A stretch of 64,000 nt of DNA from Mucilaginibacter rigui (GTDB taxonomy: Bacteria > Bacteroidota > Bacteroidia > Sphingobacteriales > Sphingobacteriaceae), in assembly GCF_014773275.1 (NCBI RefSeq), contig NZ_JACWMW010000001.1:1054001-1118000 (forward strand), in the 5' to 3' direction. Of this stretch, positions 2,490 to 33,200 are shown in pieces. Positions within the stretch are counted from its first letter, which is position 1. Each line of letters opens with the position of its first letter. A model generated the notes under the pieces. That model did not search any database and was not told the origin of the DNA. It saw only the letters and a program-made list of their open reading frames with translations. A program made the translations under genes and the position numbers.

Positions 2490-2490
2490 A

Positions 2491-5545: not shown

Positions 5546-5546
5546 A

Positions 5547-8500
5547 ATGGGCAGACTATCAGAACTAAAGGGGGTTGAAAGACCCGTAACAGAATGGCTA
5601 AGTAAAATGGGCTGGGTTTTCAAAAGTAATGATGACCTCAAGATCTATAATCGCCCGTTTTCAAACCCCGTATTAGAAAGCATTCTAATTGAAAGAACTG
5701 CCTATATAAATGATATTTCAGTCGAAGTTGCAAAAGTTGCCGTTGAACAATTACTTCAAAGCCTTAATAATCCGATACCCATACTAGGCAACGAGTTGTT
5801 TTTAGAGAAGCTTGCTTCCCACGTGACCATCACAATTGACGGTGATGATATAGATGTGCATTTTATTGACTACGAAGATATCTGGAACAACGACTTTATA
5901 GTAACCAATCAATACTGGGTACAAGGCTACAAAATGGTGAAAACTGATATTGTTTTGCTTGTAAATGGCATTCCCCTGGTTCCGATAGAAGCAAAACAAA
6001 GGGCCAGGAAAGGCACTAATTGGGTTGAAGGAGTAGTTCAGTTCTCTACCTATGACCAAAGGGCAGACAAACTATATATGTGCCACTCTTTCGGTGTAGC
6101 CTGTAATGGACGCATCGCAAAATATGGTATACCGGGCGCATCCTCTTCGTATTTTAATGAATGGAAAAGCACCATTCTTGATGTAAGTCATCCAAACCCT
6201 ATCCTGGAGCCTGCCAATGATTTATGCAGGACTTACAAGGATGATAAAGACGGCCTTTGGAATTTCGACGTTGAACGATTACCAAATGGTGAAGTTTTGG
6301 AACGAATGAAATTAGGTATCATTGGCCTTCTTCAACCTGCAAGAGTGCTGGACATTCTTAAGCACTTTATGGTCTTTGAAAGAACCGAAGGTAAGATCAT
6401 AAAGAAAGTGGCAAGATACCAGCAATTACGGGCGGCAAATAAAATAGCTGATAGGGTAATTAATTCGGATTTAAAACAAGGTGTTATCTGGCATACACAG
6501 GGCTCCGGCAAAAGCCTGACAATGCTTTATACTGCTTTTAAATTAAGGCAAACCAAGGCTTTAAAAGATCCTACCATTTACATTATTGTTGACAGGAAAG
6601 ACCTTAGGGAACAAATTGGCGGAACATTTGATGACTGTGAATTCCCTAATGCCAGATCTGTTAATAATATCGGAGACCTGAAGTATATCATTGATAAAGC
6701 GCCTGCAGGAGTATTTATAACAACCATCCAGAAATTTCGGGAATTAGGAAACAGGCAGGATGAAAGAGACAATATAATTCTACTTATTGATGAAGCTCAC
6801 CGTTCCCAATACGGTGACTTTCAGATAGAGCTACAAAACGTTCTGCCAAATGCCAGGCGATTTGCGTTTACAGGAACGCCTATTCCCAAAACACATCAGG
6901 AGTTTGGAGTAGTTCGTGAAAGTGGAGGACATGAATATTACCTCGACAGATATAGCATTCAGGATGCTATTGATGATGGTGCTACAAAGCCAATAAGATA
7001 TACTTTCGGCCCTATGGAGTGGTTCCTGGATAAAGAAAAGCTAAAAAAAGGATATGAAGAAATCACAGCTGATCTCAATGAGGACGAAAAAAGATTAGTT
7101 GAAAAGCGCGTGCAGCCTTGGAAGGTCTTCTTGAAGCATCCTGATAGGATTCAAACCCTTGCTAAAGATATTGCTGATGACTACCGTGCCGTAGTCGAGC
7201 CACAGGGTTATAAAGCTCAGGTTGTTGCCTGTGATAAGGAAGCATGCGTACGATACTACAATGAATTACTGAAATATTTCGACCGGTCAGAAATATCAAT
7301 CATATTTTCAACAGGCGCTTATGATAAAGGGGATAAGTATGAACTGTACAAAGATCATTATAAAGATGACGTAGAAAGAAAAAAGCTGATCAGGCAATTC
7401 AAACGCCGCATCACTTCGGAGGAGCAAAAATTAGGGAATAACCTGAAAGTATTTATTGTATGCAATATGCTGTTGACGGGTTTCGATGCCCCTATTGAGC
7501 AGACAATGTATCTTGATAGCCCGATTCGTGACCACAACCTCTTACAGGCAGTTGCAAGAACCAACCGGCCATACGACGATAAGATCTCTAGACTTTCAAA
7601 GGAATTTGGGCGGATAGTAGATTATATCGGCGTATTCCAGGATTACAGAGAGGCATTAAACTATGACCCAGATGATATCGGTGAATTTGAAGATGTAGAA
7701 AGTTTGGTTGCAACATTTCCCAAGGTATTAGAAGATGCTTTCAAACCTTTTGAAGGCATAGTTATGGAGGATTCTTATGAATGTGCCATGAATATTGTCC
7801 GTAAGCTTACTGAAATTGACCATGGAAAATTCGAGGGCACATTCCGCGAAGTGGTACAACTATGGGAATCCATCTCTCCCCATCCTAAGCTCCGGGAGCA
7901 ACGGGAAAAATACCTTTGGCTGAATGAGATCTATGAAATCTACCTGGAAGAATTTAAGAGAATTGATTTTGATACGGAGATCTATGCAGCTAAAACCAGG
8001 AAATTAATAGAGGAAACAGCTAAATTAATTAGCTTCAAAGGTCACCTGCCTGAAATAAAAATTGATTCTGACTATCTGAGCAAGTTAAAGGAAACAAAAC
8101 TTAACCCATCGGATAAAGCGGAAAAAATTATCCGCGATATTGAAACGGTGATCAGGCAAAACGAAGTAAACAGCGCGATTTATGTTGAGTTCCAAAATCG
8201 CCTTGACGATCTGATTAAACAGAAACAGGAGCAAAGTCTGGCTATCGAAGAAATATTGAATAAGCTGGGCTCGCTATATAATGAATTAGATGAAGTGGCC
8301 TCTTTACCCCAGCGTATGGGATTTCCTGATAAAGGATCGTTTGAAATATTTACCTTAATAAAGAGCTTCTCGAAAGATGGCTTTAACGCAGAACTGGCGA
8401 GAGAGTTTTCGATAACAGCTTTGGAAAATGTGATCAAGAAAAAGATTTACATAGGTTGGCAGGATGTTCCCAGGGAATATGAGCGGCTTCAGGCGGACAT

Positions 8501-8609
8501 AGAACTATTATCTGTAAACCCTAAGTTTGAGCAGTTGGGTATTGATGAGCAGGATGAGCTTATGGAGGGAATTATGAAAGCTATTTCAAAAAATTACAGC
8601 CTTGATTAA
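5547..8609 (+). CDS. hsdR: Type I restriction enzyme endonuclease/translocase subunit HsdR
   Basis: HsdR translocates DNA and cuts it when the HsdMS complex meets unmodified targets. The 1020-residue length is normal. The N-terminal nuclease shows VPIEAKQRA near residue 148; the superfamily 2 motor shows motif I HTQGSGKSLTM near 312, DEAH near 414, motif III AFTGTPI, and a motif VI-like AVARTNRPY. A helical tail follows for HsdMS binding. It begins one base after mcrC and its TAA overlaps the next ATG (TAATG), so the array is one tight operon. The gene is intact. With hsdS frameshifted, the nuclease may be idle unless the hsdS frame is restored. Confidence 0.95.
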   Translation: MGRLSELKGVERPVTEWLSKMGWVFKSNDDLKIYNRPFSNPVLESILIERTAYINDISVEVAKVAVEQLLQSLNNPIPILGNELFLEKLASHVTITIDGDDIDVHFIDYEDIWNNDFIVTNQYWVQGYKMVKTDIVLLVNGIPLVPIEAKQRARKGTNWVEGVVQFSTYDQRADKLYMCHSFGVACNGRIAKYGIPGASSSYFNEWKSTILDVSHPNPILEPANDLCRTYKDDKDGLWNFDVERLPNGEVLERMKLGIIGLLQPARVLDILKHFMVFERTEGKIIKKVARYQQLRAANKIADRVINSDLKQGVIWHTQGSGKSLTMLYTAFKLRQTKALKDPTIYIIVDRKDLREQIGGTFDDCEFPNARSVNNIGDLKYIIDKAPAGVFITTIQKFRELGNRQDERDNIILLIDEAHRSQYGDFQIELQNVLPNARRFAFTGTPIPKTHQEFGVVRESGGHEYYLDRYSIQDAIDDGATKPIRYTFGPMEWFLDKEKLKKGYEEITADLNEDEKRLVEKRVQPWKVFLKHPDRIQTLAKDIADDYRAVVEPQGYKAQVVACDKEACVRYYNELLKYFDRSEISIIFSTGAYDKGDKYELYKDHYKDDVERKKLIRQFKRRITSEEQKLGNNLKVFIVCNMLLTGFDAPIEQTMYLDSPIRDHNLLQAVARTNRPYDDKISRLSKEFGRIVDYIGVFQDYREALNYDPDDIGEFEDVESLVATFPKVLEDAFKPFEGIVMEDSYECAMNIVRKLTEIDHGKFEGTFREVVQLWESISPHPKLREQREKYLWLNEIYEIYLEEFKRIDFDTEIYAAKTRKLIEETAKLISFKGHLPEIKIDSDYLSKLKETKLNPSDKAEKIIRDIETVIRQNEVNSAIYVEFQNRLDDLIKQKQEQSLAIEEILNKLGSLYNELDEVASLPQRMGFPDKGSFEIFTLIKSFSKDGFNAELAREFSITALENVIKKKIYIGWQDVPREYERLQADIELLSVNPKFEQLGIDEQDELMEGIMKAISKNYSLD

Positions 8610-9265
8610 TGGTACTGCCTGATAATCTCATATTAGTACAAAAAGACGTTAAACATGCCCGGATAAGGGTGAGCGAGGATGGAAAAATCCGCGCGATCAT
8701 TCCTGAAACTTTTTCAGAGGATGATATAACAGCATTATTGAAGAAGAAAAAGTCATGGATTGAAAAGCATTTAAGATTTTTCAATGGCATGTCTAAAATA
8801 ATTCTTCAGCGCAACGAGCTTTTACTTTTTGGCAACAGGTACAGTTATTTTTATGACTCAACCTACGAACATAAAGTTTTAGTTGATCATGAACATAAAA
8901 CTATTAACTCGAGAAGAAATTTGTTAGAAGCAAAAACGCAACAGGCTTGGTACACCAATCTGGCCAGAAAATACCTAACCAAAAGAACCAGTGAACTCGC
9001 AGGAAATCTACATTTTGAATACAATAAACTATATATACGGAACCAGAGAACTAAATGGGGAAATTGCTCAAAGGAAAAGAATATATCCTTAAACTGGAGG
9101 TTGATTAAAGCGCCCCTTTTTGTAATCGACTATCTGATAATTCACGAATTGCTTCATACTGTTGTTATGAACCATAGTCAGAAGTTCTGGACGATGCTCA
9201 AGTCATACTATCCAGATTATAAAGATGCCATTAGTTGGTTGGATAAATTTGGTAACAGTTTGTAG
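8609..9265 (+). CDS. YgjP-like (DUF45) zinc metallopeptidase-fold protein
   Basis: The 218-residue protein belongs to the YgjP/DUF45 family. The signature is clear: KWGNCSKEKNISLNWRL, then YLIIHELLHTVVMNHSQKFW, with zinc ligands HELLH near residue 179 and a downstream His in NHS. The biochemical role of this family is unsettled. Members often sit at the end of type I restriction operons, as here, where the start overlaps the hsdR stop by one base. A role in control or turnover of the restriction complex is inference. This is the last gene of the operon. Confidence 0.85.
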   Translation: MVLPDNLILVQKDVKHARIRVSEDGKIRAIIPETFSEDDITALLKKKKSWIEKHLRFFNGMSKIILQRNELLLFGNRYSYFYDSTYEHKVLVDHEHKTINSRRNLLEAKTQQAWYTNLARKYLTKRTSELAGNLHFEYNKLYIRNQRTKWGNCSKEKNISLNWRLIKAPLFVIDYLIIHELLHTVVMNHSQKFWTMLKSYYPDYKDAISWLDKFGNSL

Positions 9266-12283: not shown

Positions 12284-13492
12284 CTAACCCAATCTTTGCC
12301 CTTTTCTTTTCTTACGCTTGCGTTTGAATTCATTCAATGCACTTTGATCCATATCACCAGCAAGGTGATCAGTGCCGAGCAAACTCCCGATAAAATCGCT
12401 ACCAGGTAAAGCCTGATGACCCACCTGCTGCCGACCTTGTTGTTGGCTTTGGATATCTGCTCCGCGCTGTATGAGATACTTTTGATCTGGAACGCCAGAT
12501 TGGTTGCCTGGCTGTCCATCAGCTCTAGCCGCCTGCTGGTATCTGCTATCTTTTGCTCTGATCTGATCCTGTAGTTTTCCAGTGCCCTGCTGTATATCTT
12601 TTCTATTTCCGGCAGCAACTTCTGTATCTGCGTCAATTCCTGTTGCTGTTCCTCTTGCGGTAGATTCAACTGCTCTTGTTGATCGTTGCCATTCTCTTGT
12701 CCTAACATTTGCCTGGTGAATTGTTGTGCGATCTCTTTCTTGTTCATAACTGATAGCATTTTTAATAGCCTGCCATTTATAAGCATTGCCTAAGTGAACC
12801 CCTTTGAACTGCATGCCTTCATATCCGTAGGATATGCCGCTTACAAAACCGGTACTGGCCTGATTAAATAATACATTGATTCCCTTAGATTCCAACGACT
12901 GAATGAATTGTGTGGCATCCAGCTTCCTGCTGAGCACATCTTTAATGATCTCCTGTAACTGCATTTTGGAGGACGGCACATTTGTTCGCTTCATCATTTC
13001 CAGTTCATTCTTGGTCATAGCCCGTTCCTGCGCTTGCCTGCTGGAGATGACCTGTGTCAAGCCATGCTGCTTTTCCAGCTTTCTGAGCACCTGCTCGCTT
13101 CTCTGGTAGTCTTTACTGTCGGATACCACTGTCCCGTCGTAGCCGATGCGGTTGACCAGGATATGCAAGTGCGGATGATCGGCATCGTAATGCCGGAAGA
13201 TGGCATACTGGTGCTGGTCAAATCCCATGTTGTTCAAATATTCATTTGCAATCATGTTCATTTGTTCATCCCCCAAATTCTCGTTTGGCGGGAAGTTCAG
13301 GGATGTATGGTAGAAGTACTTCTGGAGATTTGGTCTCAGCATTCTGACCAAAGCCACCTCACGCATGATAGAACCCTCTTTGCCCGATGTAAAAGTCATA
13401 TTGAGGATTTTAGCAACGCCTTGATCGACCTTTTGCAGGTTGTACCGCAATGCGCCCCTGAATCCTTTTCCTTTTACCTGATCCGCTGTCAT
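12284..13492 (-). CDS. mobB: MobB-type relaxase (mobilisation nuclease)
   Basis: Relaxases nick the transfer origin and pilot the strand in conjugation. The ATG at 13492 overlaps the mobC stop (ATGA); a TTG 12 bases upstream is less likely. The N-terminus KGKGFRGALRYNL is typical of the family, and the metal-binding histidine cluster HYDADHPHLHILVNR lies near residues 100-115. The last 150 residues (Gln/Arg/Gly-rich) have no recognised domain and overlap a second gene in another frame. No integrase, primase or type IV secretion genes are near, so the element would be mobilisable rather than self-transmissible. Confidence 0.9.
   Translation of the reverse strand: MTADQVKGKGFRGALRYNLQKVDQGVAKILNMTFTSGKEGSIMREVALVRMLRPNLQKYFYHTSLNFPPNENLGDEQMNMIANEYLNNMGFDQHQYAIFRHYDADHPHLHILVNRIGYDGTVVSDSKDYQRSEQVLRKLEKQHGLTQVISSRQAQERAMTKNELEMMKRTNVPSSKMQLQEIIKDVLSRKLDATQFIQSLESKGINVLFNQASTGFVSGISYGYEGMQFKGVHLGNAYKWQAIKNAISYEQERDRTTIHQANVRTREWQRSTRAVESTARGTATGIDADTEVAAGNRKDIQQGTGKLQDQIRAKDSRYQQAARADGQPGNQSGVPDQKYLIQRGADIQSQQQGRQQVGHQALPGSDFIGSLLGTDHLAGDMDQSALNEFKRKRKKRKGQRLG
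12334..12747 (-). CDS. Coiled-coil membrane protein encoded out of frame inside mobB
   Basis: This 137-residue frame lies wholly inside the 3' third of mobB, on the same strand and in a different frame. It reads like a real protein: MNKKEIAQQF start, a Gln/Glu-rich amphipathic region (EIEKIYSRALENYRIRSEQ), then one strong membrane segment at the C-terminus (LYLVAILSGVCSALITLLVIWI). The ATG at 12747 is chosen; the frame runs further, to 12786. The mobB frame over the same bases is low-complexity, suggesting that the inner frame carries the main constraint. A role in relaxosome or membrane docking is inference. Confidence 0.65.
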   Translation of the reverse strand: MNKKEIAQQFTRQMLGQENGNDQQEQLNLPQEEQQQELTQIQKLLPEIEKIYSRALENYRIRSEQKIADTSRRLELMDSQATNLAFQIKSISYSAEQISKANNKVGSRWVIRLYLVAILSGVCSALITLLVIWIKVH

Positions 13493-13824
13493 TTCATTAA
13501 GCAATTGAGTATGTCCTTCTGGGTCTTTATCAAAGCGGTCAATATGGTCAAGAAAGCTGGCGACAGTTTACCTGCGTTGAGTTGCTTAACCGCCTGGTTC
13601 AGGTTAACGCCGATCTTGTGCAACTCGCGGTACAATTCGGCATTAACAGGCGAAAGCTTGATGGCAGGGAACCTGCCAGTAAATGCTTTCTGCCTGATCC
13701 AGTTAGCCGGTGTCATTGCCGATGCCTGGGCATAATTGCAAACCATATGGTTCTCTTCTTTTGTCAGCCGGATATTGACCTGTATGATCCTTTTATCCTC
13801 TTCCTGTAAAGCCGGTCTTCCCAT
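13489..13824 (-). CDS. mobC: MobC-type relaxosome accessory protein
   Basis: The 111-residue protein shows the MobC pattern: MGRPALQEEDKR, then INIRLTKEEN-like ribbon residues (VNIRLTKEENHMVCNYA), ANWIRQKAF, and the conserved LHKIGVNLNQAVKQLN. MobC proteins bind near oriT and help the relaxase open it. The stop overlaps the mobB ATG by four bases, so the two are co-translated. The hairpin at 13870-13910, just upstream, is a candidate binding target. Confidence 0.9.
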   Translation of the reverse strand: MGRPALQEEDKRIIQVNIRLTKEENHMVCNYAQASAMTPANWIRQKAFTGRFPAIKLSPVNAELYRELHKIGVNLNQAVKQLNAGKLSPAFLTILTALIKTQKDILNCLMK

Positions 13825-13928: not shown

Positions 13929-14219
13929 CTATTTACTGAAATTGATCCGCTTGCTCTTAACTTCTCCTTTTAAAACCTTCATGATATCCTCGTAATTGTA
14001 ATACAGGATGCCACCGATTTTAGTAAAGGGAATGGTACCGTTATCCCGCAATGTTTGTAGAGTATTAGCGGAGATTTTGAGCAGGTTCTTGACCTGGTAA
14101 CTCTTCAAAAATTTCTTGGGCTCTTCGCTTGAACCGCCGCTAATTAGTGCTTTCATTTGACTAAGCAGTCGTTCTCCAAACTCCTGCAAGTCTTCCTTCG
14201 TGATGATTTCTGCTGCCAT
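13929..14219 (-). CDS. Excisionase/MerR-like helix-turn-helix protein of the mobile element
   Basis: The 96-residue protein has a charged N-terminus, then a winged-helix-like HTH_17 domain: KSYQVKNLLKISANTLQTLRDNGTIPFTKIGGILYYNYEDIMKVL. This type accompanies integration and mobilisation genes in Bacteroidota elements, acting as excisionase or regulator. It is first in a minus-strand series with mobC and mobB, separated from mobC by the candidate oriT. A good promoter and palindrome lie upstream. Confidence 0.85.
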   Translation of the reverse strand: MAAEIITKEDLQEFGERLLSQMKALISGGSSEEPKKFLKSYQVKNLLKISANTLQTLRDNGTIPFTKIGGILYYNYEDIMKVLKGEVKSKRINFSK

Positions 14220-14981: not shown

Positions 14982-16844
14982 ATGATTGCAATAAGAAGAC
15001 CACCTAAATCTCAGCCTACACCGCCACCCACGTTTCCCAAAGATGCCATACAAACAATTGAAGGCATTAATATAGACTATCTTGAACTAAAGGAGGCCGA
15101 TTACAAAGCGAAGCACACGACATTCAGAAATGTTGCTTTTAAAAGCCTAGTTCTTTTTGACGGAACTAAGCTATCACATGGTCTGCTGTTTGAAGACATT
15201 GAGTTTCCCGAGGCCGTTGTATTTAAAAATGTTATTGTTGATCAATATGATCAACTGATCAGCCCAGATTCCGTAAGCATCGTTTTTAAAAACTGTACCT
15301 TTAAACAGCCCGTTCAAATCATTGGCCAGCATACTCATATAGACCGCAGTATTTGCTTTGATAATTGTATTTTTTATGAAGGCTTGTCAATTGAAAGAAT
15401 TACTGTAGTAAAGGAAGGCCTTAGTTTTAAAAATTGCGAGATACACCAAAAGCTTGATATTTTTAATTCGGTATTTAATTCTGATATAACTTTCCGCGAA
15501 ACACATATCCATGCTTATCTGCGCTTATTCGCCGTCAAATCGGGTATGCTGGTATTTTCTAAATTAAACATAGATGGCAATCTCCACCTTGATTCTTCAA
15601 CGTTTCCGAACGGCATTGTTTTTAATGATGGCAATTTTAAAGATGATGTTTACTTTACCTTGAATAAAACTGACCGTTCAGGTTTGACCATGATCGGTTC
15701 TTCTTTTGAAAAATCAATTACCATTAATCACCAAAGCAAAGACAAGGTGCTTGAAAATGGTATCTCTCAGTATTACATCAGCAGCGCCAAGTTTTCAAAT
15801 GGGCTATCAATCAAGGGCATAAGCAACCTTGCATCACCATTTCCTAAAGTGAAGGAAATAACCTTGGACATTTCTTCCCTGCTGATTGGCAGCATCGTTT
15901 TTGATTCGCTGGATATTGGTATACTGAATCTTTCGGGATATAATACTTTGGCGAAGGTGACTTTTAAGCATACCGCAATCCGGCAGATCAGGGCCAAAGA
16001 GTTTATCAATGAGAGCGGCCTGATTTTTTCCGATGTTATTGCATCCGGCAGCGATTGGCCTGACGGAAATAACGGATTTTTGGGCAGCGCCTTATACATG
16101 GATAATACCAATTTCGGCAAAGCGCAGTTTTTTCAAACCAATTTTAAATCGTTTGAAAAGGTCGTTTTCACGAACATCATTTTAACGGAAATCGCTACTT
16201 CAAATGTGACCTGGTTTACTGCTAAGAAATTAGAGGATGGAATAATTGTATCATTGAAAACAAAGTTGAAAGCAACCATAAAGACAAAGGACAAGTTAAA
16301 GATTGAACAGGACAGAAACGCGTTGATCAGGGAATTAAATACTATTAAAGAGATTTATCGGCAACTAAAATTTGCGGCTCAAAAACAGGGGGATATTCCA
16401 TTATCTCATGAGTTTCAGCGTATCGAAATGGGCTATTATAAAGAGATTACGCAAGTAGAAAGGCCGCGCCGATGGAGTGAGTTTTTGATTTTATACAGTA
16501 GTCAAAGCAATAATTTCGGACAAAGTTGGGTACGAGCGTTATGGGGATTAATTGTCTTTTCATTTATTTGCTACATCCCTGTCGGTTTTTTGACCTCGGA
16601 ACACCTAGACTATACCAAAGCTGCTGTTTCTTTAGACGATCTCATTGTCAACGCAAGGGTGATATTCCTGGATAATATCAAGACTTGGCTCACGCTGTTC
16701 AATCCTACACACCGGGTGAAAGATATTACAGAAAGTATCGACAAATTTTCATCCTGGGTGTATTTCTGGGATTTTATCAGCAGGATTGTAGTGGCGTACT
16801 TCATTTTTCAAATGGTGAGCGCTTTTCGGAAATTCAGCAAATAA
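14982..16844 (+). CDS. Beta-helix (pentapeptide-like) protein with C-terminal membrane segments
   Basis: The 620-residue protein opens with a Pro-rich stretch, then about 370 residues of short repeats resembling degenerate pentapeptide repeats (VFKNCTF, CFDNCIF, SFKNCEI), predicted to form a beta-helix. A charged helical linker (KLKIEQDRNALIRELNTI) leads to two membrane segments near residues 518-537 (LIVFSFICYIPVGF) and 595-613 (ISRIVVAYFIFQMV). The layout, a sensor-like helix tied to a small membrane module, resembles defence effectors that permeabilise membranes, but no pore motif is seen. It begins the plus-strand cargo block. A GC-rich hairpin follows it, so it may be transcribed apart from the genes downstream. 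Confidence 0.6.
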   Translation: MIAIRRPPKSQPTPPPTFPKDAIQTIEGINIDYLELKEADYKAKHTTFRNVAFKSLVLFDGTKLSHGLLFEDIEFPEAVVFKNVIVDQYDQLISPDSVSIVFKNCTFKQPVQIIGQHTHIDRSICFDNCIFYEGLSIERITVVKEGLSFKNCEIHQKLDIFNSVFNSDITFRETHIHAYLRLFAVKSGMLVFSKLNIDGNLHLDSSTFPNGIVFNDGNFKDDVYFTLNKTDRSGLTMIGSSFEKSITINHQSKDKVLENGISQYYISSAKFSNGLSIKGISNLASPFPKVKEITLDISSLLIGSIVFDSLDIGILNLSGYNTLAKVTFKHTAIRQIRAKEFINESGLIFSDVIASGSDWPDGNNGFLGSALYMDNTNFGKAQFFQTNFKSFEKVVFTNIILTEIATSNVTWFTAKKLEDGIIVSLKTKLKATIKTKDKLKIEQDRNALIRELNTIKEIYRQLKFAAQKQGDIPLSHEFQRIEMGYYKEITQVERPRRWSEFLILYSSQSNNFGQSWVRALWGLIVFSFICYIPVGFLTSEHLDYTKAAVSLDDLIVNARVIFLDNIKTWLTLFNPTHRVKDITESIDKFSSWVYFWDFISRIVVAYFIFQMVSAFRKFSK

Positions 16845-16848
16845 GAAA

Positions 16849-16872
16849 GGCGGTGATCCGTAGATCACCGCC
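16849..16872 (+). terminator. GC-rich hairpin after the beta-helix gene
   Basis: An exact 10-base repeat GGCGGTGATC/GATCACCGCC with a CGTA loop begins 5 bases after the stop codon. The downstream side is Cs and As rather than Ts, so termination may be weak or Rho-assisted. Confidence 0.55.
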
Positions 16873-17198
16873 CCCAAAAGGAACTGGCCGCCCGGAAAGC
16901 TTTACGGAAAGGCCAGCCTACGATCTCGTTTTTTAAGTTTATCTCGTTGCTAAGCATTTAACTGCTTATTTTTTCCGAGGTGGCCAAAACAATGCTTTGG
17001 CCAGGGAGGTCACGACATTAGCCGCTATCCCTATTAAAAAACTACTTACCATAGTCCTGCAAAATTAAAGCTTATTTGCTGTTATCACGAATGAACATTT
17101 AACAATATAGTGGCAGGTTACAGTATCGCTTTTAATTGCAAATTCAATTTTGCAACAGGAAATAATTGTATCGTATTTTGCATAGATAGATTGGTTCA
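16873..17198. other. 326-base gap upstream of the SH3/SIR2 genes
   Basis: The gap has no large gene. It holds the candidate peptide at 16966-17052 on the minus strand. A likely plus-strand promoter for the next gene is seen as TTTTG, then TATTTTG ending about 20 bases before the ATG at 17199, close to but not exactly the Bacteroidota consensus. Confidence 0.45.
16966..17052 (-). CDS. Candidate 28-residue hydrophobic peptide
   Basis: The frame reads MVSSFLIGIAANVVTSLAKA then LFWPPRKK: one hydrophobic helix ending in aromatic, Pro and basic residues, like type I toxin peptides. A perfect TAATTTTG (-7 type) sits at 17059-17066 on the minus strand, 6 bases before the ATG. No homologue is known to me, and short frames arise by chance. 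Confidence 0.35.
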   Translation of the reverse strand: MVSSFLIGIAANVVTSLAKALFWPPRKK

Positions 17199-18158
17199 AT
17201 GAAAGAATTGGAAAGTATTACAGCAGCTGTTAATGCTACCCGAAACATTAATAAAAATTGGGGACTGGATTCGCCCATGATGAAAATGATTACGGCACAG
17301 CGGGAACTACAGGATAAATTAATGCCATTTAGGAATCATGAAATTTTTAATACAGTAGCCCGTATTCAAAAAATGATGCCGCGCTACGAAGAAAGTGGCA
17401 TCATGACGATGATTAAAAATATCAGAAGTGCCAGTGATATGATGCCGTCGGGGGCAATGACCGCAATCATGGCTATTCAAAGGCAGAATCAACACCTGTT
17501 TAGTACAACCCGTAGCATATTAGATGCCTTGCCCGCGCAAGCTGCTTTCAGTCAGGTCAACAGTCTGCAATATGCGCTGTCTGGTATTACTAAAAATATC
17601 GCCGCAATAGCTGCCACGAATCGAGACTGGTCATTAGTAGATGATTTTGAAGAAATTAGCAGCCAGGCCATTGAATTAACCGATCATCTGTCGGTTGATG
17701 TTGCTTTAACCGAGGAAGAAAACGTAGCATTTCAATCACTTATTCAGTACGTAGTTTCCATTATAAAAAAACATCGAAAGTTCGGCATCTACTCACTGCT
17801 TTTTATTGACATGGTGTTAAGGGTCGCCTCTTTTCATCAATATTTTGACTTTTTGAAATCAAAGCCAGAATTAGCGACGAAAGAGGATTTCGGAAAATTT
17901 GAAAAGAAGCTATTGCAGTCTATACGGGAGAAACTAAAAGAGGAACAGGAATATCGGTTAACAAACAGGGCATGCAAAGTTTATCTTAAGCCTAAGTTTA
18001 AAAGTTTGAAGTTAACAACCTTACCTGTCAAATTTGATGTGATCGTATTGCAGATTAATCACAAGTGGGCTTATATCAGCTACATTGATCCGACTGATAA
18101 CGTTTCTCAAACAGGCTGGGTACCCAAAAAATTCCTTACACCGGCCAAAGGCCATTAA
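17199..18158 (+). CDS. Unknown protein with C-terminal SH3-like domain
   Basis: The 319-residue protein is helical for its first 240 residues, rich in Met/Ile/Ala in the N-terminal part, with an amphipathic segment FGIYSLLFIDMVLRVASF near 200. The last 70 residues look like a bacterial SH3 domain (ACKVYLKPKFKSLKL, then VIVLQINHKWAYISYI and TGWVPKKFLTP). It is first in a run of five same-strand genes and lies 32 bases before the SIR2 gene. SH3-like domains often bind protein or wall ligands; a sensor role in a defence operon is inference. Confidence 0.55.
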   Translation: MKELESITAAVNATRNINKNWGLDSPMMKMITAQRELQDKLMPFRNHEIFNTVARIQKMMPRYEESGIMTMIKNIRSASDMMPSGAMTAIMAIQRQNQHLFSTTRSILDALPAQAAFSQVNSLQYALSGITKNIAAIAATNRDWSLVDDFEEISSQAIELTDHLSVDVALTEEENVAFQSLIQYVVSIIKKHRKFGIYSLLFIDMVLRVASFHQYFDFLKSKPELATKEDFGKFEKKLLQSIREKLKEEQEYRLTNRACKVYLKPKFKSLKLTTLPVKFDVIVLQINHKWAYISYIDPTDNVSQTGWVPKKFLTPAKGH

Positions 18159-18190
18159 TAAAATGCTGCTTTCTCCCTAATTTTATAGGA

Positions 18191-19530
18191 ATGGAATCGA
18201 AAAGACGTAAACGGAATGTTTTTTTATTTGGTGCAGGTGCGACCCTGGACTGGGGCTCACCGTTAACCTCTGAGTTGACGGAATTAATATTAGCGTCCGG
18301 GTTTAAGATTAAAGATGGCGTATAACCATTACCCAATTTATTTATGATACACTTATTGAAAATGGTTATCGTTCCTGGGACGTTAATTTTGAAACTATCA
18401 TCAATGTTGTTGAAGAAATCATTGTCTTTTATGGCAAGTTCAACTATGGCGAACACTTTGAGAAAAATAAACTGCCCTCATTGATCAGTTGTTTTTTTAC
18501 AGACCGATATGCCGCAGAACTTCAAAACTTTTCGATTAGAGGCGGCGAAATTAAGTACGGTTATCAATTACAGATACCTATTGGGGTTAATTACGATATG
18601 GCAAATAACGCCTATCAGGATGAACCACCTGTGCAGTTTTTCTTTCAGCATTTGTTGAACGTGCTATTGACGACGATCAGCCAAAGGATAACACAGTACG
18701 CCTACCATGCTGAAGGACACTCCGATATTGACGAAAATAGCGAAATGGGTATGCTATTTGTCAAATGGATGAAGCAAAAAAAAGAAAGAGGCAATCTTCG
18801 GCTTTATACACTTAATTATGAGCGGATTTTTAAAGTATTGTTAGAGCGCACCGGGACACCCGTTTTTGAGGGTTTCGATTGTGGAGAGTATATCGCTTAT
18901 ACAGATCGGTTAAGGGCAAATGTACCTAAGATCCTGGCGGATGATATAAGTGATGTGCATTATAATTTACATGGCTCTGCTTTTTGGGAAGTGCTTGACC
19001 TGGATCATGCACAGCTGCCTAATCCTGAAATTGTACTGACCGCTTTTCCTCATTTACCGATTAACAACAGCCCTGCATCTTTTCAGGTAGAGAAAGGAAA
19101 AACCATTATGGTCACTAATCTTATTACAGGTTATCAGAAAGCCCAGAAAGCAATGATAACGCCGTTTAAACAAATGCAAGCGGCTTTTGACAAAGATTGT
19201 TGCTTTGCCGACAATATTTATATCATCGGTTATTCCCTGGGCGACGAACACATCAATGAATCCATAAAAACCGCCCTACGACATAACTCCGCGATCAAGA
19301 TTACTATTGTCGATCCTTTTTTCATCAAAAACAAGAAAGACTTTGATATCGCAATTAAATATTACCCATTTAAACAAACGACTAATTTTTCACCGACCAA
19401 TATTGACGGCAATAGAATCTATAGCTATTTAGAGGGTGCTTTGATGGTTTATAACGTAACATTTCAGGATTTTTTGAAGATGCAAACCGATATTTCTTTT
19501 CGATTCCGCTTTAACTTATTGAATGATTGA
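18191..19530 (+). pseudogene. SIR2-like NAD-binding protein, frameshifted near its N-terminus
   Basis: The ATG at 18191 opens with NVFLFGAGATLDWGSPLTS, a SIR2-like nucleotide-binding loop, but the frame stops at 18323-18325. The rest continues in another frame from about 18322 (ITQFIYDTLIENGYRSWDV) to 19530, with LYTLNYERIF, the catalytic-type YNLHGSAFW and the terminal NIYIIGYSLGDEHI typical of SIR2-like defence proteins. A two-base insertion or one-base loss near 18320 explains the break. In known systems such domains degrade NAD+ on infection. A late TTG (18481) could start only a truncated protein without the NAD loop. The stop overlaps the next ATG. Confidence 0.75.
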
Positions 19531-20324
19531 TGATACAGAACGAAGATAAAGACCTGGATATTTCAAATTATGCGGCTACGTTTTTACCGGATGGCCTGCC
19601 CGAAAAAGTATATAAGTTTACTACAATCAATGACAATACGCTGAAGTCGTTAAAGGATGCCTATTTATGGTATTCCCGCCCATCATCTTTCAATGATCCG
19701 TATGATTGCTATAAACATTTGTTGACTTTCGATCCTACTGAACAGGATATTATTGATTTCGTTACAAAAAATATTTGGTTGACCGGAGCGGCTTTACAGG
19801 CGGAAATCAATTACTTTTTACAACATCGGGAATTGATTCCACAGGCTCAAATGGCGACCATAGAGGATACGCTTGACGCTCAGGGGATATGCTGCTTTAC
19901 AACGAATTATCGGAATACCTTGATGTGGTCACACTATGCAAAAAATCATTCTGGTATATGTATGGTCTTTGAACCTAAAAATGATATTACATCTTTCTTT
20001 ATTAGCAAAGTGCATTATACCAGTGAATTTACACCCTGGAACTATTATGATAGAAACAGGATCGGTTTGATGTTTTTGATAGCAACCAAATCGTCAGATT
20101 GGGCCTACGAATGTGAATATAGGGGTATGAGCATGAATCCGGGAGCTGTTCCTTTTCAGCGGCAGGCGTTGACCGAGATTATTTTCGGATGTAAAACTAA
20201 GCAGGAAGATATCGAGGCGGTAATGAATACGATCGAGAGCGCCGGTTATCCCCGGATGAAATATACTCAGGCGTGTATGTTAACTAATAGTTTCCTATTA
20301 GATTTTAAATCCTTAAAACAATAA
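19530..20324 (+). CDS. DUF2971 domain protein (first copy)
   Basis: The ATG at 19530 overlaps the SIR2 stop (TGATG), giving 264 residues. The DUF2971 pattern is plain: KVYKFTTI, LWYSRPSSFNDPYDCY, GICCFTTNYRNTLMWSHYAKNHSGICMVFEP and, later, WAYECEYRGM. The family's function is not established; members occur singly and in defence-like loci. The conserved FNDP, MWSHY and EYR blocks suggest an enzymatic pocket. Tight coupling to the SIR2 gene suggests a shared task. Confidence 0.85.
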   Translation: MIQNEDKDLDISNYAATFLPDGLPEKVYKFTTINDNTLKSLKDAYLWYSRPSSFNDPYDCYKHLLTFDPTEQDIIDFVTKNIWLTGAALQAEINYFLQHRELIPQAQMATIEDTLDAQGICCFTTNYRNTLMWSHYAKNHSGICMVFEPKNDITSFFISKVHYTSEFTPWNYYDRNRIGLMFLIATKSSDWAYECEYRGMSMNPGAVPFQRQALTEIIFGCKTKQEDIEAVMNTIESAGYPRMKYTQACMLTNSFLLDFKSLKQ

Positions 20325-20341
20325 GATAGCAAATAGTACAG

Positions 20342-21436
20342 ATGCAGACTGTAAATTTCAAGTTAAAAAGGCTTTGTAATTACCTCATTTTGAATCTGAG
20401 CATGCACCATCGTTTCATCTACGAGATAGGAATTGTAATTCACGACAAAGAGGTAAACATTCAACTGAGATCGGATAAGTTAAAATTTGACGACGCGAAG
20501 CTGGGCTTAGATGCGATCTTAAATAAATTTGCTGAAACAAAAGCGGAGTTGGAAACCTATGGTTATCGTTTCAATACAAGCAATACCCAGGTGAAATTTA
20601 CAGCTAAATACATCGCTACACTATCCTTCTACTATTTCATACCTGAAAAAACCAAACGCAGGTACATATTTAAGTATATGCCGGTAAGCCTGAACTCGAT
20701 CAAACTACTCGTCAACAACGAACTTTGGTTCAGCGATCCGAGGACTTTTAATGATCCCTTTGATACCCGCTACTCAATAGATGCCGACCCGAAAAAGGAA
20801 GAAATTATTGATTTTTACTATAAGGAAGCGAAAAAACTGGTAGGTAGTGAGGCATTATTATTAACCGATTTTATCAAAACTTTCAAAATACCCGACCGTC
20901 AGGTTTTTCTTAATGACTTAGAGAAACATCATTACGTAAATACTATAGCTGACCAATATGGCATTTGTTGTTTTTCAGAGAAGCATGCAGACCATTTGAT
21001 GTGGAGCCATTATGCCGACAATACAAAAGGTATTTGCCTCGTTTTTGACTTAAACGTTGTTCCTGAAAATGATTACTATGTATTTTCCGGCTCCAAAGTG
21101 AAATATCGAAATTCCATTATTAAAAAGTTCTACGACGGTTCGCGTTATATGGATACAACAGAAATCATTTATTCAAAATATAAGAACTGGAAATATGAGC
21201 ATGAAATTCGTGAACTCATGACTTTTGAGAGTGGCACCAATGAACGAACCGTTGCTTTTGATCCCAAGAGTTTGAAAGGAATCATATTTGGGCCTAAAAC
21301 CAGTAACAAAGACAAAAAGACCATAAAAAGCCTTGTCGGCCAGTTGGCTAAATATCACATATCCTTTATCGAAAGTAACATTGATCTTCATAGTCACTCC
21401 ATACGCCTGCTTCCTAATCAATTGAGGTTAAAGTAG
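20342..21436 (+). CDS. DUF2971 domain protein (second copy, longer N-terminus)
   Basis: The 364-residue protein carries DUF2971 from about residue 105: IFKYMPVSLNSIKLLVNNEL, WFSDPRTFNDPFDTRY, GICCFSEKHADHLMWSHYAD, GICLVFDL and WKYEHEIREL. About 100 extra N-terminal residues of alpha/beta type are unassigned. It follows the first copy by 17 bases. The two copies are divergent rather than a recent duplication, so they may form a hetero-pair. Function is unknown. Confidence 0.85.
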   Translation: MQTVNFKLKRLCNYLILNLSMHHRFIYEIGIVIHDKEVNIQLRSDKLKFDDAKLGLDAILNKFAETKAELETYGYRFNTSNTQVKFTAKYIATLSFYYFIPEKTKRRYIFKYMPVSLNSIKLLVNNELWFSDPRTFNDPFDTRYSIDADPKKEEIIDFYYKEAKKLVGSEALLLTDFIKTFKIPDRQVFLNDLEKHHYVNTIADQYGICCFSEKHADHLMWSHYADNTKGICLVFDLNVVPENDYYVFSGSKVKYRNSIIKKFYDGSRYMDTTEIIYSKYKNWKYEHEIRELMTFESGTNERTVAFDPKSLKGIIFGPKTSNKDKKTIKSLVGQLAKYHISFIESNIDLHSHSIRLLPNQLRLK

Positions 21437-21510
21437 ATTGTTAGTCACTTCAGTTTTTCGGCTTAACAAATTTTTCACAGCATTTATTAACTTAGATAAA
21501 AGCTTTCATA

Positions 21511-22557
21511 ATGCCGGGACTTACAATTGAACAAGGAATAAATCAAGTAATGGGTGGTCGCCACATTGTTATATTAGGTGCAGGTGCCAGTATAGCCGCA
21601 ACCCGAAGAAATGCCGAATTGAACGGCAAAGTTCTGCCATCAATGTTGAATTTTATCGATGTTCTCGGGCTGCAAGATATTGTTGCAGATACGCCGCCTG
21701 AACTTCGCCATCAGAATTTTGAAACACTTTATGGCAACATTTACGCGCATGACCCCGAATCTGCGTTATTAGGACGAATCCAGGAGCGTATCCAGAACTA
21801 TTTCGGGAGTATGCGATTGCCAAATACGCCTACCATCTATGATTACCTGATTTTATCGTTACGTGCTAAAGACCATATCGCTACATTTAATTGGGATCCT
21901 TTTTTGTATCAGGCGTGGTGTCGAAACCGTGAGTTTACCAAAAATCTTCCTTATATGTCATTTTTGCATGGCACTGTGGCTTTAGGTTATAGCAAGGAAG
22001 ATAAACGCTCCGGGCCAGTTGGTTATCAGGCTCGGCGAGATGGCGGTGTGTTTGAGCCGGTTCCATTGTTGTATCCTATCCAGCAAAAAAATTATAATGA
22101 TGGAGAATTTATTATTGAAGCCTGGGATTCATTAAAGGCAATGTTGCATAAAGATAGCGGATCCGTTCGCGCCACTATATTTGGCTATGGGGCGCCGGTA
22201 TCGGATGTGGAAGCGGTTGATCTTTTAAGTGAAGCATGGGGTACAGCAGATGAAAGAGCGATGGAGCAATTTGAAGTGATTGATATTGTCGCCGAGGATG
22301 AATTGCGGGAACGCTGGGATCGTTTTATCCATACCCATCACTACGATATAACAGATTCTTATTTCGGGTCGTCTTTAGCTTTAAATCCGCGCCGCACCTG
22401 TGAAAGTTATTTTAGCCATTATCGGGCATTTACGCCAGATGAAGCGTTTCGCCGTAATAACCCGATTCCACAAAACTTTACCTCTCTTGGTGAGCTTTGG
22501 GCGTGGCACCAACCATTACTTGATGCGGAACGTCGTGAGGGAGAAAATGAGGATTGA
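21511..22557 (+). CDS. SIR2-like NAD-binding protein (second, intact)
   Basis: The 348-residue protein has a SIR2-like fold: HIVILGAGASIAATRR near residue 18-33, the loop HIATFNWDPFLYQ near 124 and YMSFLHGTVALG near 148, then ATIFGYGAPVSDVEA near 224. The acid (Asp in FNWD) and the LHG histidine used by SIR2-type NAD hydrolases are present. The N-terminal leader LTIEQGINQVMGGR is family-like. It ends the cargo block, 74 bases after DUF2971. It could be the intact NADase of the locus or a separate defence gene. Confidence 0.8.
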   Translation: MPGLTIEQGINQVMGGRHIVILGAGASIAATRRNAELNGKVLPSMLNFIDVLGLQDIVADTPPELRHQNFETLYGNIYAHDPESALLGRIQERIQNYFGSMRLPNTPTIYDYLILSLRAKDHIATFNWDPFLYQAWCRNREFTKNLPYMSFLHGTVALGYSKEDKRSGPVGYQARRDGGVFEPVPLLYPIQQKNYNDGEFIIEAWDSLKAMLHKDSGSVRATIFGYGAPVSDVEAVDLLSEAWGTADERAMEQFEVIDIVAEDELRERWDRFIHTHHYDITDSYFGSSLALNPRRTCESYFSHYRAFTPDEAFRRNNPIPQNFTSLGELWAWHQPLLDAERREGENED

Positions 22558-22562
22558 TATTT

Positions 22563-22640
22563 AGGGCGTTCCCCGGTTCCCTCCGGGTCCGGCTATCCGC
22601 TATATCCGCTGCGCGGGATGCCGCTCCTACCCGTAACGCA
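22563..22640. repeat. GC-rich structured intergenic element
   Basis: A 78-base stretch much richer in GC than its flanks begins GGGCGTTCCCC and ends CCCGTAACGC, so its outer bases can pair. It looks like GC-rich sequences seen beside genes of Bacteroidota mobile elements (recollection, not searched). It may terminate the upstream gene. Confidence 0.4.
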
Positions 22641-22801
22641 TTTTCGGACGAGTTCATCATGTACAGAATGTGGAATATTCACGAGTGTAAATGGTTATAA
22701 ATTACCAGCAGGTGCATCAACGGAAAGCCAACTATGATAGGATAAGTTTAGTGTTATTAATCTATTTTCTCTAAACGGTGGGTTTATTCAATACAATCAA
22801 T

Positions 22802-22942: not shown

Positions 22943-22957
22943 TCCCTCCCTCACCGC
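22943..22957 (+). other. Putative attachment site: 3' end of a tRNA-Ser
   Basis: TCCCTCCCTCACCGC reads like the T-stem 3' side, the acceptor 3' strand (CCTCACC) and the discriminator G of a tRNA-Ser with a GGTGAGG acceptor. The sequence before it does not fold into a tRNA, and a strong terminator follows. This is the pattern left where an element integrates into a tRNA gene and duplicates its 3' end. The intact tRNA would lie left of the window. Confidence 0.55.
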
Positions 22958-23243: not shown

Positions 23244-23952
23244 TTAACCTGATAACGGTTTAAGAATAAGCGATTGCACAAGTTTTCGCTGCGAACGGCT
23301 AAGTGGCAGTCGATATTTGCCAACTAAGACTTCTGCCTGCCCGATACTATCAATATGACTGACCGACACAAAGTATGACCGGTGGGTTAGGACAAAAGCG
23401 TCCGCCGGTAGTTGCGTTTCCAAACCCTTTAAACTGGAGTAGACCGTGAACTTTTGTTCCGGTAAGACGACATGTACGTAGTTGGCCATCGCTTCTATAA
23501 ACAAGATATTGGCGATGGGGATTTTTTGCAGGCGCTGGTCACATTTAACATATAAATAGCCCGGCTGCTGCTTTAATGATCTCACCCCAGCCTGGCCGCT
23601 TACATTGGCCAAAGCCCGTTCACAGGCCTTGGTGAAACGCTCGAAAGTTACCGGCTTCAATAAATAATCGGTAACTGCCAGCTCAAACCCCTCGATCGCG
23701 TATTCCGGAAAAAGCAGTGACCAGAATAACCTGCTGTATGATCTCCTGACTTTTTAGGAACTCAATTCCGCTCACTTGCGGCATCTGGATATCCAAAAAG
23801 ACCAGGTCGACCGGCTTGCTACGCAAAATGCCATTCGCTGCTACCGTGTTACGTGCCACCCCTGCCAATTGCAGGAAGGGCAGGCGGCTGACATAGGCTT
23901 CGAGTTGCTGTCGCGCCAGCGGTTCATCATCAACAATTAGGACTTTAAGCAT
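23244..23952 (-). pseudogene. LytTR-family response regulator, frameshifted
   Basis: Two adjacent minus-strand frames form one LytTR response regulator. The receiver (23952 downward: MLKVLIVDDEPLARQQLE, VDLVFLDIQMPQVSG, phospho-acceptor Asp in FLDIQMP) breaks at QVILVTAFSG. In the neighbouring frame it continues as PEYAIEGFELAVTDYLLKPV into the LytTR DNA-binding domain (YLYVKCDQRLQKIPIANILFIEA, FVLTHRSYFVSV). One extra base in the A5 run at 23709-23713 accounts for the break; four As restore about 236 residues. It overlaps the kinase gene by 16 bases. Decay and sequencing error are both possible. Confidence 0.88.
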
Positions 23953-30242: not shown

Positions 30243-33200
30243 ATGTTAAATCATATTATCGCTTTTTCCGTAAGGAATAAGCTGATCATTGGGCTTTTTA
30301 TCATTGCCCTGATTGGCTATGGCAGCTACCAGTTTACCAGGCTGCCCATTGATGCCGTACCTGATATTACCAACAACCAGGTACAGGTTATTACCGTAGC
30401 TCCGTCATTCGGGGCTACTGATATCGAACGTTTAGTTACCTACCCGATAGAACAGGCCAACAGCAACATTTCCGGTCTCAAGGAAATCCGCAGCTTTTCC
30501 AGGTTCGGCCTTTCACTGGTCACGATCGTATTTGACGATGCCACAGATATTTACTGGGCGCGACAGCAGGTGGCCGAGCGTTTACAAAAAGTGCTAAGCC
30601 AGATACCTTCCGGTATCGGGACACCTGAACTTGGCCCTGTAAGCACCGGTTTGGGCGAGATATATCAATATGTATTGCGCCCTAAAAAGGGCTATGCTGC
30701 GAAATACAATGAAACCGACCTGCGGACTATCCAGGACTGGATAGTCCGCCGCCAACTTCTGGGTGTTAAAGGTGTTGCCGAGGTGAGCAGCTTTGGCGGT
30801 AAGCTAAAGCAATATTCGATCGAGGTTGATCCTAATAAATTGTTTTCGCATAATATGACGATTACCGACGTATTCAAAGCACTTGAAAATAACAACCAGA
30901 ATACTGGTGGAGCTTATATTGAAAAAGGGCCCACTGTGCTTTACATCCGCAGCCAGGGACTGATTGGCAACATAGACGACATCAATAATACGGTGATTAA
31001 AACCACTATTGGCGGATCGCCCATTTTTATCAGAGACGTAGCCGATGTTAAAATTGGCTACGCCACCCGGTTTGGTGCGCTGTGTTATAATGATGAGGGG
31101 GAAGTTGCAGGCGCGGTGGTGATGATGTTGAAAGGGGCTAACAGCAGCGAGGTGATCAAAAATGTCAAGGCGCGCATCGTACAGATCCAGAAAACCATGC
31201 CCGAAGGCGTGGTGATCGAGCCATTTCTGGACCGCACCAAAATGGTTAACAATGCCATTGGTACGGTAGAGCGCAACCTGCTGGAAGGCGCGCTGATTGT
31301 GGTATTTGTGCTTGTATTGTTCCTGGGGAACTTCAGGGCCGGGCTGCTGGTTGCTTCCGTAATTCCATTGGCCATGCTGTTTGCCATTATCATGATGAAC
31401 CTGTTTGGCGTAAGCGGAAACCTGATGAGCCTGGGGGCGCTGGATTTTGGCTTGATTGTAGACGGAGCCGTCATTATTGTGGAAGCGGTTATGCATACAC
31501 TTAGCAGTAGTAAACAATTTAAAAGCATGGGCGCCATGGGCCAGGATGACATGGACAAGGAGGTAAACAGTGCTGCCAGCAAGATGATGAACAGCGCTGT
31601 TTTTGGCCAGATCATTATCCTGGTGGTGTATCTGCCTATCTTCACATTGCAGGGCATTGAAGGTAAAATGTTTAAGCCCATGGCACAAACGGTAGCATTT
31701 GCTTTACTGGGCGCTTTTATTTTATCACTTACTTATATCCCTATGATGAGCGCCGCCTTTCTGAGCAAGAAAATCAAGCAGAAACCGAACATTTCAGACC
31801 GGCTGATGACTAAAGTAGAAATAGCGTACCAGTCAGCCCTTAACCGGATCATTGCTTTTCCGAAAATGGTTGTGTTAACCGTTGCGGGCTTATTTATATT
31901 TTCAGCTTATATTTTAACTACACTGGGCGGTGAATTTATTCCAGCACTGGAAGAAGGTGATTTTGCCGTTGATACCCGCGTACTAACGGGAAGCAACCTG
32001 CATACAACTATCGCTAACACCCAAAAAGCAGCCCATATCTTAAAAACACAGTTCCCTGAAGTGGAAAAAGTGGTTACCAAGATTGGCAGCGGCGAGGTGC
32101 CGACCGACCCGATGCCGATGGAAGCCAGCGATATGATGGTGATCCTGAAACCCAAGGACGAATGGACATCAGCAAAAACCTTTAATGAACTTTCCGAAAA
32201 AATGGGCAAGGCCTTGCAGGCTGTTCCGGGTGTTACTGCGGGTTTTCAGTTCCCGGTGCAGATGCGCTTTAACGAACTGATGACAGGCGCACGCCAGGAT
32301 GTAGTTTGCAAGATATTTGGCGAAGACCTGGATACCCTTGCAGCTTATGCCAATAAACTGGGTAAAATCATCAATACTGTTGACGGTGCTAAAAACCTGT
32401 ACGTAGAGGCAGTTGCCGGCATGCCGCAGATCATCATTAACTATAACCGCAGCATTATAGCGCAATACAACCTCAACATAGCCGATATTAACAAGGTGGT
32501 TAACACGGCGCTGGCCGGGCAAAGCACCGGAACCCTGTTTGAAGGTGAAAAGCGCTTTGAGGTAGTGGTCAGGATAAGCGGTGAACAGAAAAAAGATCTG
32601 AAGGATATCCAAAATTTGCTGATTCCGACACCGGGAGGCGCGCAGGTTCCTTTGTCTCAATTGGCCGATGTACAGATCAAGGATGGGCCCAACCAGATAC
32701 AGCGGGAGGATGCCAAACGCCGTATTGTTGTAGGGTTTAACGTTCGCGGCAGGGATGTACAAACCATTGTAAACGACTTGCAGGCCAAGGTGGATAAGCA
32801 ACTCAAGTTCCCGGCCGGATATTATGTAACCTATGGTGGCGCCTTTGAAAACCTGAATGCTGCCAAACAGCGCCTGATGATTGCGGTGCCGGTTTCGCTG
32901 CTACTTATTTTTTTACTGCTCTATTTCGCTTTTAACTCTATCAAGCAGGGGTTACTGATATACTCCGCAATTCCTTTATCAGCTATCGGGGGGATACTAT
33001 TCCTGGCCCTGCGGGGCATGCCATTCAGTATTAGTGCAGGTGTAGGCTTTATTGCTTTGTTTGGTGTTGCTGTGCTCAACGGCATTGTATTGATCTCCGA
33101 GTTTAACCAGTTAAAAAAAGAAGGTATGACCGATTTAAAACGTATCGTGTTAATGGGTACCAAAGTAAGGCTAAGGCCGGTACTCATGACCGCTTTTGTT

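What the first reader, a model, noticed from the sequence alone, without database searches (positions are those of the whole stretch)
14982..22557. Candidate undescribed defence locus: beta-helix membrane protein, SH3 protein, SIR2, two DUF2971, SIR2
Six same-strand genes of defence-like type sit in an island with restriction and mobilisation genes. From 17199 on the gaps are small (32 bases, overlap, 17, 74), so they look like one operon. The combination of two different SIR2-like proteins with two divergent DUF2971 proteins and an SH3-like leader protein does not match any system I know by name. SIR2 domains in other defence systems deplete NAD+. The membrane module upstream could be a second effector.
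Basis: partly seen in the sequence, partly recalled or inferred. Interest (0 to 1): 0.75.

Follow-up and report, generated by a model that had tools for sequence, protein, structure and literature searches.

The report
Swappable defence cargo of mobile element
A 28-kb stretch of DNA with the marks of a mobile element, sitting at a serine tRNA gene, carries a row of likely anti-phage genes whose relatives nearly always turn up apart from one another in other bacteria, so they are probably interchangeable one-gene defences rather than one new system, and one of the two SIR2-like genes reads as broken.

Summary
The genes and spacing are real, but they are not one conserved system. The six genes fill the right-hand cargo bay of a ~28.3-kb integrative mobilisable element: a tyrosine integrase beside tRNA-Ser(gct), relaxase/MobC genes, and an exact 15-bp copy of the tRNA 3' end at 22943-22957. 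In two same-genus relatives the tRNA is followed directly by the right-flank DNA. In 43 loci with a relative of either SIR2 gene, none of the other five was found; over all 63 loci examined, one (L200) holds distant relatives of two of the six. A shared contig length (29,969) hints that both SIR2 genes may co-occur once elsewhere. Related elements share backbone genes but carry different cargo. SIR2-1 (18191-19530) is frameshifted after 44 codons, by decay or sequencing error. Both DUF2971 proteins match PADLOC's existing candidate PDC-S31. SIR2-2 (21511-22557) is the most interesting part: a strongly conserved SIR2-like family (3,003 homologues) unmatched in Pfam, NCBIfam, PADLOC and PHROGs, its model nearest to the SIR2 subunit of SIR2-HerA, with the presumed catalytic Asn and His invariant. 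NAD+ cleavage and phage defence are inferred, not shown.

The parts
14982..16844 (+). 620-aa protein with weak pentapeptide-repeat (beta-helix-like) match and a hydrophobic C-terminal segment; cargo gene
   Evidence: best relatives in G207 (two copies), G181, G061 without the other five
17199..18158 (+). 319-aa 'leader' protein, no Pfam family; relative in G108 (37%) has no SIR2 or DUF2971 beside it
18191..18325 (+). SIR2-1, first piece (44 codons, GAGAT nucleotide-binding loop), ends in a stop
18481..19530 (+). SIR2-1, second piece in another frame (the frame itself is open from upstream of 18481); intact relatives are about 445 aa
19527..20324 (+). DUF2971a (265 aa; an ATG at 19530 overlaps the SIR2-1 stop by one base)
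   Evidence: PF11185 8.5e-09; PDC-S31 1.5e-47; phrog_1762
20342..21436 (+). DUF2971b (364 aa, with an extra N-terminal domain of about 100 residues)
   Evidence: (model pLDDT 95)
21511..22557 (+). SIR2-2, 348-aa SIR2-like protein of a large family without a profile; presumed catalytic N127 and H153
22943..22957 (+). attR: exact 15-bp copy of the 3' end of tRNA-Ser(gct); right end of the element
   Evidence: attL is L139:14628-14642 (G000:C6:1048628-1048642), outside the window
12284..13504 (-). MobA/VirD2-type relaxase of the element
   Evidence: PF03432 9.2e-37
13489..13824 (-). MobC/NikA-like mobilisation protein
13929..14219 (-). HTH_17 protein (excisionase-like) that borders the cargo bay
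   Evidence: homologues near cargo in L004, L006, L130, L190, L200
9734..11284 (-). HEPN-domain protein of the element backbone
   Evidence: PF05168 2.3e-10; homologues in L130 and L188
11350..11739 (+). XRE-type HTH regulator of the element backbone
   Evidence: homologues in L004/L188, L130, L183, L190, L201, weaker in L009, L023, L202
202..8609 (+). Left-hand cargo: type I restriction operon (hsdM runs in from upstream of the window, hsdS, hsdR) with an AAA/McrC pair between hsdS and hsdR

Best explanation
The six genes are cargo of a 28.3-kb element bounded by direct repeats at a tRNA-Ser gene, and since none of 43 loci with a relative of either SIR2 gene carries any of the others, they are likely independent, separately traded one-gene anti-phage modules rather than one system, with the intact SIR2-like protein at 21511-22557 predicted to halt infection by cleaving NAD+. 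The element encodes an integrase and a relaxase but, among the 18 proteins scanned, no conjugation machinery, so it would move with a helper. Shown by sequence: the 15-bp repeats, the integrase, the relaxase/MobC genes, the empty sites, the frameshift in SIR2-1, the separate occurrence of relatives. Inferred: NADase activity of SIR2-2 and of intact SIR2-1 relatives, activation by infection, anti-phage function of the DUF2971, leader and pentapeptide genes, and transfer by a helper. The tight spacing likely reflects stacking of cargo behind shared promoters, not a conserved operon.
Against: L200 (G152) holds a DUF2971 gene (26% to DUF2971a) and a pentapeptide-type gene (19%, opposite strand) about 2 kb apart with an HTH homologue some 6 kb away, and L208 (G095) holds two DUF2971 genes on opposite strands; G152 also carries SIR2-1 on another contig. 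SIR2-1 relative P0004 and SIR2-2 relative P0125 both list a longest contig of 29,969 bases, which hints that both genes sit on one further contig; it could not be fetched. Flanks searched were at most about 10 kb and several contigs were short, so partners further away would be missed. A 202-aa protein sits beside SIR2-2 in 4 of 7 loci of the order, so SIR2-2 may not always act alone. The SIR2-2 model is of middling confidence (pLDDT 73), and 3 of its 11 Foldseek matches with E <= 0.001 are 5'-nucleotidase chains, the other 8 sirtuin or SIR2-system chains. No activity was measured.
Confidence: 0.8

Rival explanations
1. The genes from 17199 to 22557 are one recently assembled multi-gene defence system in which the leader and DUF2971 proteins sense infection and the two SIR2 proteins execute.
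For: Same strand, gaps of 32, overlap, 17 and 74 bases; both SIR2 families may share one other contig.
Against: 0 of 43 loci with a relative of either SIR2 gene carry another of the six; SIR2-1 is frameshifted in this genome, so such a system would lack an effector.
Confidence: 0.1
2. A two-gene unit hides in the set: SIR2-1 with DUF2971a (overlapping stop/start), or the DUF2971 pair acting as a heteromer.
For: The SIR2-1 stop overlaps an ATG of DUF2971a; DUF2971a and b are adjacent paralogues (31.5% identity); L208 holds two DUF2971 genes, on opposite strands.
Against: 0 of 27 SIR2-1 loci have a DUF2971 neighbour; the 2 DUF2971b loci and 8 of 9 DUF2971a-type loci hold one DUF2971 gene; the two further DUF2971 genes of the own genome (L133, L134) have none of the other families beside them.
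Confidence: 0.12
3. The cargo is decaying or inactive: broken SIR2-1 is a sign that the row is no longer used.
For: SIR2-1 is frameshifted here; 4 of 25 SIR2-1 relatives have broken frames (L008, L013, L024 in-frame stops, L020 frame change); 2 of the 7 other SIR2-2 genomes of the order have broken copies (G113, G190).
Against: The other five frames are intact; the long piece of SIR2-1 is 75% identical to its best relative over its whole length, so the break is recent or a sequencing error; a chromosomal LytTR regulator at 23244-23952 is also split, which leaves assembly error open.
Confidence: 0.2

Closest known systems
PADLOC PDC-S31 (DUF2971; listed there as a candidate, the reading 'single-gene phage-defence candidate' is recalled)
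   Same: Both DUF2971 proteins match its models over nearly their whole DUF2971 part (1.5e-47 and 6.1e-46); also phrog_1762
   Different: DUF2971b carries an extra N-terminal domain of about 100 residues; two paralogues in tandem
SIR2-HerA (Nezha) SIR2 subunit
   Different: No HerA ATPase beside either gene in the window
DSR2 (defence-associated sirtuin)
   Different: SIR2-2 is 348 aa and intact SIR2-1 relatives about 445 aa, against full DSR2 chains of 920-1000 residues
Short Argonaute SIR2 partners (SPARSA; PADLOC Aga_SIR2)
   Same: The SIR2-1 family matches Aga_SIR2 models in 26 of 26 members
   Different: No Argonaute match among the cargo proteins
Integrative mobilisable elements that carry defence islands at tRNA genes (kind recalled, no named element identified)
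   Same: Tyrosine integrase, relaxase/MobC, tRNA target, att repeats, restriction genes as cargo
   Different: This element family and its particular cargo combination

Membership tests
Integrative mobilisable element | Site-specific integrase, flanking att repeats at a tRNA gene | tested here: met
Integrative mobilisable element | Relaxase/mobilisation genes but no conjugation apparatus | tested here: inconclusive
   Relaxase and MobC present; 18 proteins of the element were scanned with Pfam (8, 10) and none was a conjugation gene beyond these, but not every frame was scanned
Integrative mobilisable element | Empty site in relatives | tested here: met
   G116 and G155: tRNA-Ser followed directly by right-flank DNA
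SIR2-like NADase family (SIR2-2) | SIR2 fold | tested here: met
SIR2-like NADase family (SIR2-2) | Catalytic Asn and His | tested here: met
   N127 and H153 invariant in 23 sequences; that these are the catalytic pair is by recalled knowledge of SIR2 enzymes
SIR2-like NADase family (SIR2-2) | NAD+ cleavage | not testable with these tools
   needs an enzyme assay
SIR2-HerA system | HerA ATPase gene beside the SIR2 gene | tested here: not met
   neighbours of both SIR2 genes are the leader, the DUF2971 genes or no gene; no HerA match
DSR2 | Single protein of about 1000 aa with N-terminal SIR2 and long sensor (recalled; chain lengths) | tested here: not met
   348 aa (SIR2-2) and about 445 aa (intact SIR2-1 relatives)
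SPARSA / SIR2-Argonaute | Argonaute partner gene | tested here: not met
   no Argonaute match among the cargo proteins
PDC-S31 / DUF2971 | DUF2971 domain over Pfam cut-off and PADLOC model match | tested here: met
PDC-S31 / DUF2971 | Anti-phage activity | not testable with these tools
   needs a phage challenge; in the held library no paper has DUF2971 with phage or with SIR2, none has PDC-S31, and one genome re-annotation paper has DUF2971
Bacterial SH3 (leader protein) | SH3 profile match | tested here: inconclusive
   no SH3 match for the whole protein or its C-terminal 72 residues; looks SH3-like by eye only

The most novel reading that the evidence does not exclude
SIR2-2 founds an unnamed, single-gene SIR2 defence family: 348-aa NAD+-cleaving sentinels, 63-85% identical among the best-scoring relatives, carried on mobile elements, plasmids and viral contigs across Bacteroidota and Proteobacteria, missed by current profile libraries, and in part of its range paired with a 202-aa membrane-anchored partner.
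Probability: 0.45. Interest if true: 0.5.

Novelty: new member of a known kind. Interest (0 to 1): 0.36.

Why it matters
It replaces a proposed six-gene system by a better supported picture: a tRNA-targeted mobilisable element whose cargo bay swaps single defence-type genes, with known left and right ends and empty sites. It also singles out one gene, SIR2-2, as a large SIR2-like family invisible to the profile libraries used here, which could be tested by itself, and records that SIR2 genes of these two families are often found broken.

Tried and rejected
A conserved SIR2-DUF2971-DUF2971-SIR2 operon: rejected, 0 of 43 loci with either SIR2 gene hold another of the six (first seen).

Programmed frameshifting in SIR2-1: judged unlikely, because intact relatives such as L004 read through the same region in one frame and broken relatives break at other places.

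An integron-like cassette: the stretch after SIR2-2 (22563-22652) folds no better than shuffles (z 0.74), and its core motif occurs once in the genome; a one-base-longer form occurs in two viral contigs. Dropped.

Profile-profile comparison of the two SIR2 families gave no credible hit (probability 3.3), so they are not close relatives.

The 202-aa neighbour was not found in the own genome (no positive control).

hsdM looked cut at window 202 but is open across the window edge.

P0003 (SIR2-1 family) had no match in plasmids.

Rows left out of the 63 loci: the G144 match to the leader (E 6.6e-4), which lies in a long sensor-kinase-type frame, as chance; L188 (same locus as L004) and L189 (same as L015), by equal contig lengths; L133 and L134 (own genome). 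Of the 79 loci only the first 25 (best-segment identity 37% or more) were used. Of 22 genomes with a pentapeptide-protein match (22 of 280, own included) the loci of six genomes were fetched, seven loci in all, plus L200. Of 10 genomes with a DUF2971a match at E <= 1e-20 (10 of 280, own included) the nine other than the own were fetched: G179 is counted as the DUF2971b locus L131, and G014 has two loci.
Full report
Observation. SIR2-1 is not one gene here: 44 codons from 18191 carry the nucleotide-binding loop and end at a stop at 18323-18325, and the rest of the protein is open in another frame to 19530. An intact relative (P0003) matches the two pieces in two frames, its residues 3-38 at 86% and 43-436 at 70%. 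Relatives are common: 341 proteins with E <= 0.001, and the 26 aligned are single frames of 417-458 residues.

Where they sit. The window lies in a 4.7-Mb assembly of 14 contigs. The genus is probably Mucilaginibacter: the contig of same-genus genome G356 has the same length, 335,555 bases, as the contig of a Mucilaginibacter lappiensis protein; this is an inference from equal lengths. About 5.4 kb upstream of the window start is tRNA-Ser(gct) (L139:14555-14642), followed by a tyrosine integrase. The last 15 bases of the tRNA recur exactly at 22943-22957. In the DNA search of the right flank, matches in G116, G155 and G184 begin exactly at 22943. In G116 and G155 a tRNA-Ser(gct) gene ends there, and the alignment shows tRNA end plus right flank without an element; in G184 ARAGORN called no tRNA, so it is not counted as an empty site. 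From the end of the tRNA to 22957 the element is 28,315 bases. It holds a type I restriction operon with an AAA/McrC pair inside it, a HEPN protein, an XRE regulator, a relaxase with MobC, an HTH protein, and then the six genes.

Do they belong together? The scan of public genomes confirmed 135 SIR2-1 relatives and kept 79 loci; the first 25 (L004-L028, identity 37% or more) were used. Loci of the other genes came from searches of 151 to 400 genomes of the family or order, from three plasmids and from six viral contigs. All six proteins were compared with all loci by tblastn (for SIR2-1 the long piece was used). The 27 SIR2-1 loci and 16 SIR2-2 loci hold none of the other five: 0 of 43. The 2 DUF2971b loci, 9 DUF2971a-type loci, 1 leader locus and 7 pentapeptide loci hold no second family either; in one of them (L208) two DUF2971 genes lie side by side on opposite strands. 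One more locus, L200 (G152), holds a DUF2971 gene (26%) and a pentapeptide-type gene (19%) about 2 kb apart on opposite strands. So 1 of 63 loci holds distant relatives of two families, and none holds a SIR2 gene with a DUF2971 gene. Several contigs are short, so some neighbours could not be seen. Across 400 genomes of the order SIR2-1 occurs in 5 (E <= 1e-20) and SIR2-2 in 8 (E <= 0.001), sharing only the window's own genome. DUF2971b with its N-terminal domain occurs in 3 of 400, own included (full-length matches in the own genome, G356 and G179; 74 of 400 have some match). Against this stands one more hint: the relatives P0004 (SIR2-1) and P0125 (SIR2-2) have the same longest contig length, 29,969 bases.

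What is shared instead is the vehicle. Hufsiella ginkgonis (L004/L188), G277 (L183), G356 (L130) and G015 (L190) each carry one of the cargo families with relatives of two to five of the backbone genes (relaxase, MobC, XRE, HTH, HEPN); L006, L022, L200 and L201 have one backbone relative each, and L009, L023 and L202 a weak XRE match, which by itself says little. This is the pattern expected if related elements exchange single cargo genes. The nearest relatives of the cargo genes in the genomes searched also come from different genomes: SIR2-2 from G211 (81%), DUF2971b from G356 (68%), DUF2971a from G277 (54%).

How it likely works. By analogy with characterised SIR2 effectors (for example DSR2, whose NAD+ depletion is stated in abstracts seen in the listing), intact SIR2-2 would cleave NAD+ after sensing infection and stop the cell. 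This rests on fold and two conserved residues and was not tested. DUF2971 function is unknown; DUF2971b has a well modelled core without a match in the fold searches and an N-terminal alpha/beta domain.

Breakage. Besides the window copy, 4 of 25 SIR2-1 relatives have broken frames (L008, L013, L024 by in-frame stops, L020 by a frame change), and 2 of the 7 other SIR2-2 genomes of the order have broken copies (G113 with stops, G190 in fragments). This could mean that such genes are costly. In the window itself assembly error is not excluded, because a chromosomal LytTR regulator just outside the element is also split.

Verdict. The locus is a new example of a known kind, a defence-carrying mobilisable element, and not a new six-gene system. 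The part worth following is SIR2-2.

Noticed in passing
L124:7725-8333, L126:7794-8402, L129:2638-3246, L123:8184-8828: A 202-aa protein with one hydrophobic segment (214 aa as called in L123) sits directly beside SIR2-2 in 4 of 7 loci from the order (downstream in three, upstream in one) and is kept where SIR2-2 is broken (L126, L129); it is not in the window.
   Followed up: partly
window 23244-23952 (-): A LytTR response regulator is split into two frames; a second frameshift in the 64-kb window, outside the element.
   Followed up: partly
L200:7589-10492: In G152 a DUF2971 gene and a pentapeptide-type gene lie close together on opposite strands with a homologue of the window's HTH protein some 6 kb away: perhaps a related element with two of the cargo types.
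   Followed up: partly
window 1100-8609: An AAA ATPase/McrC pair (2491-5545) is embedded between hsdS and hsdR of a type I restriction operon; a YgjP-like metallopeptidase gene follows at 8609-9265.
   Followed up: no
window 22566-22640: Short sequence with the motif GGCTATCCGCTATATC after SIR2-2, once in the genome, a close form also in two viral contigs; no unusual fold.
   Followed up: partly
L194-L199: SIR2-2 relatives (38-44% identity) occur on six viral contigs, in three of them within about 350 bases of a contig end (L194, L198, L199).
   Followed up: no
L136:5942-8987: On a Vibrio plasmid SIR2-2 follows an ATP-binding protein gene that looks HerA-like by eye, and on a Pseudoalteromonas plasmid (L135) another SIR2-like frame, by eye, follows it.
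   Followed up: no
window 30243-34592: One 1449-aa frame appears by eye to join an RND-type transporter and an outer-membrane-factor-like part.
   Followed up: no
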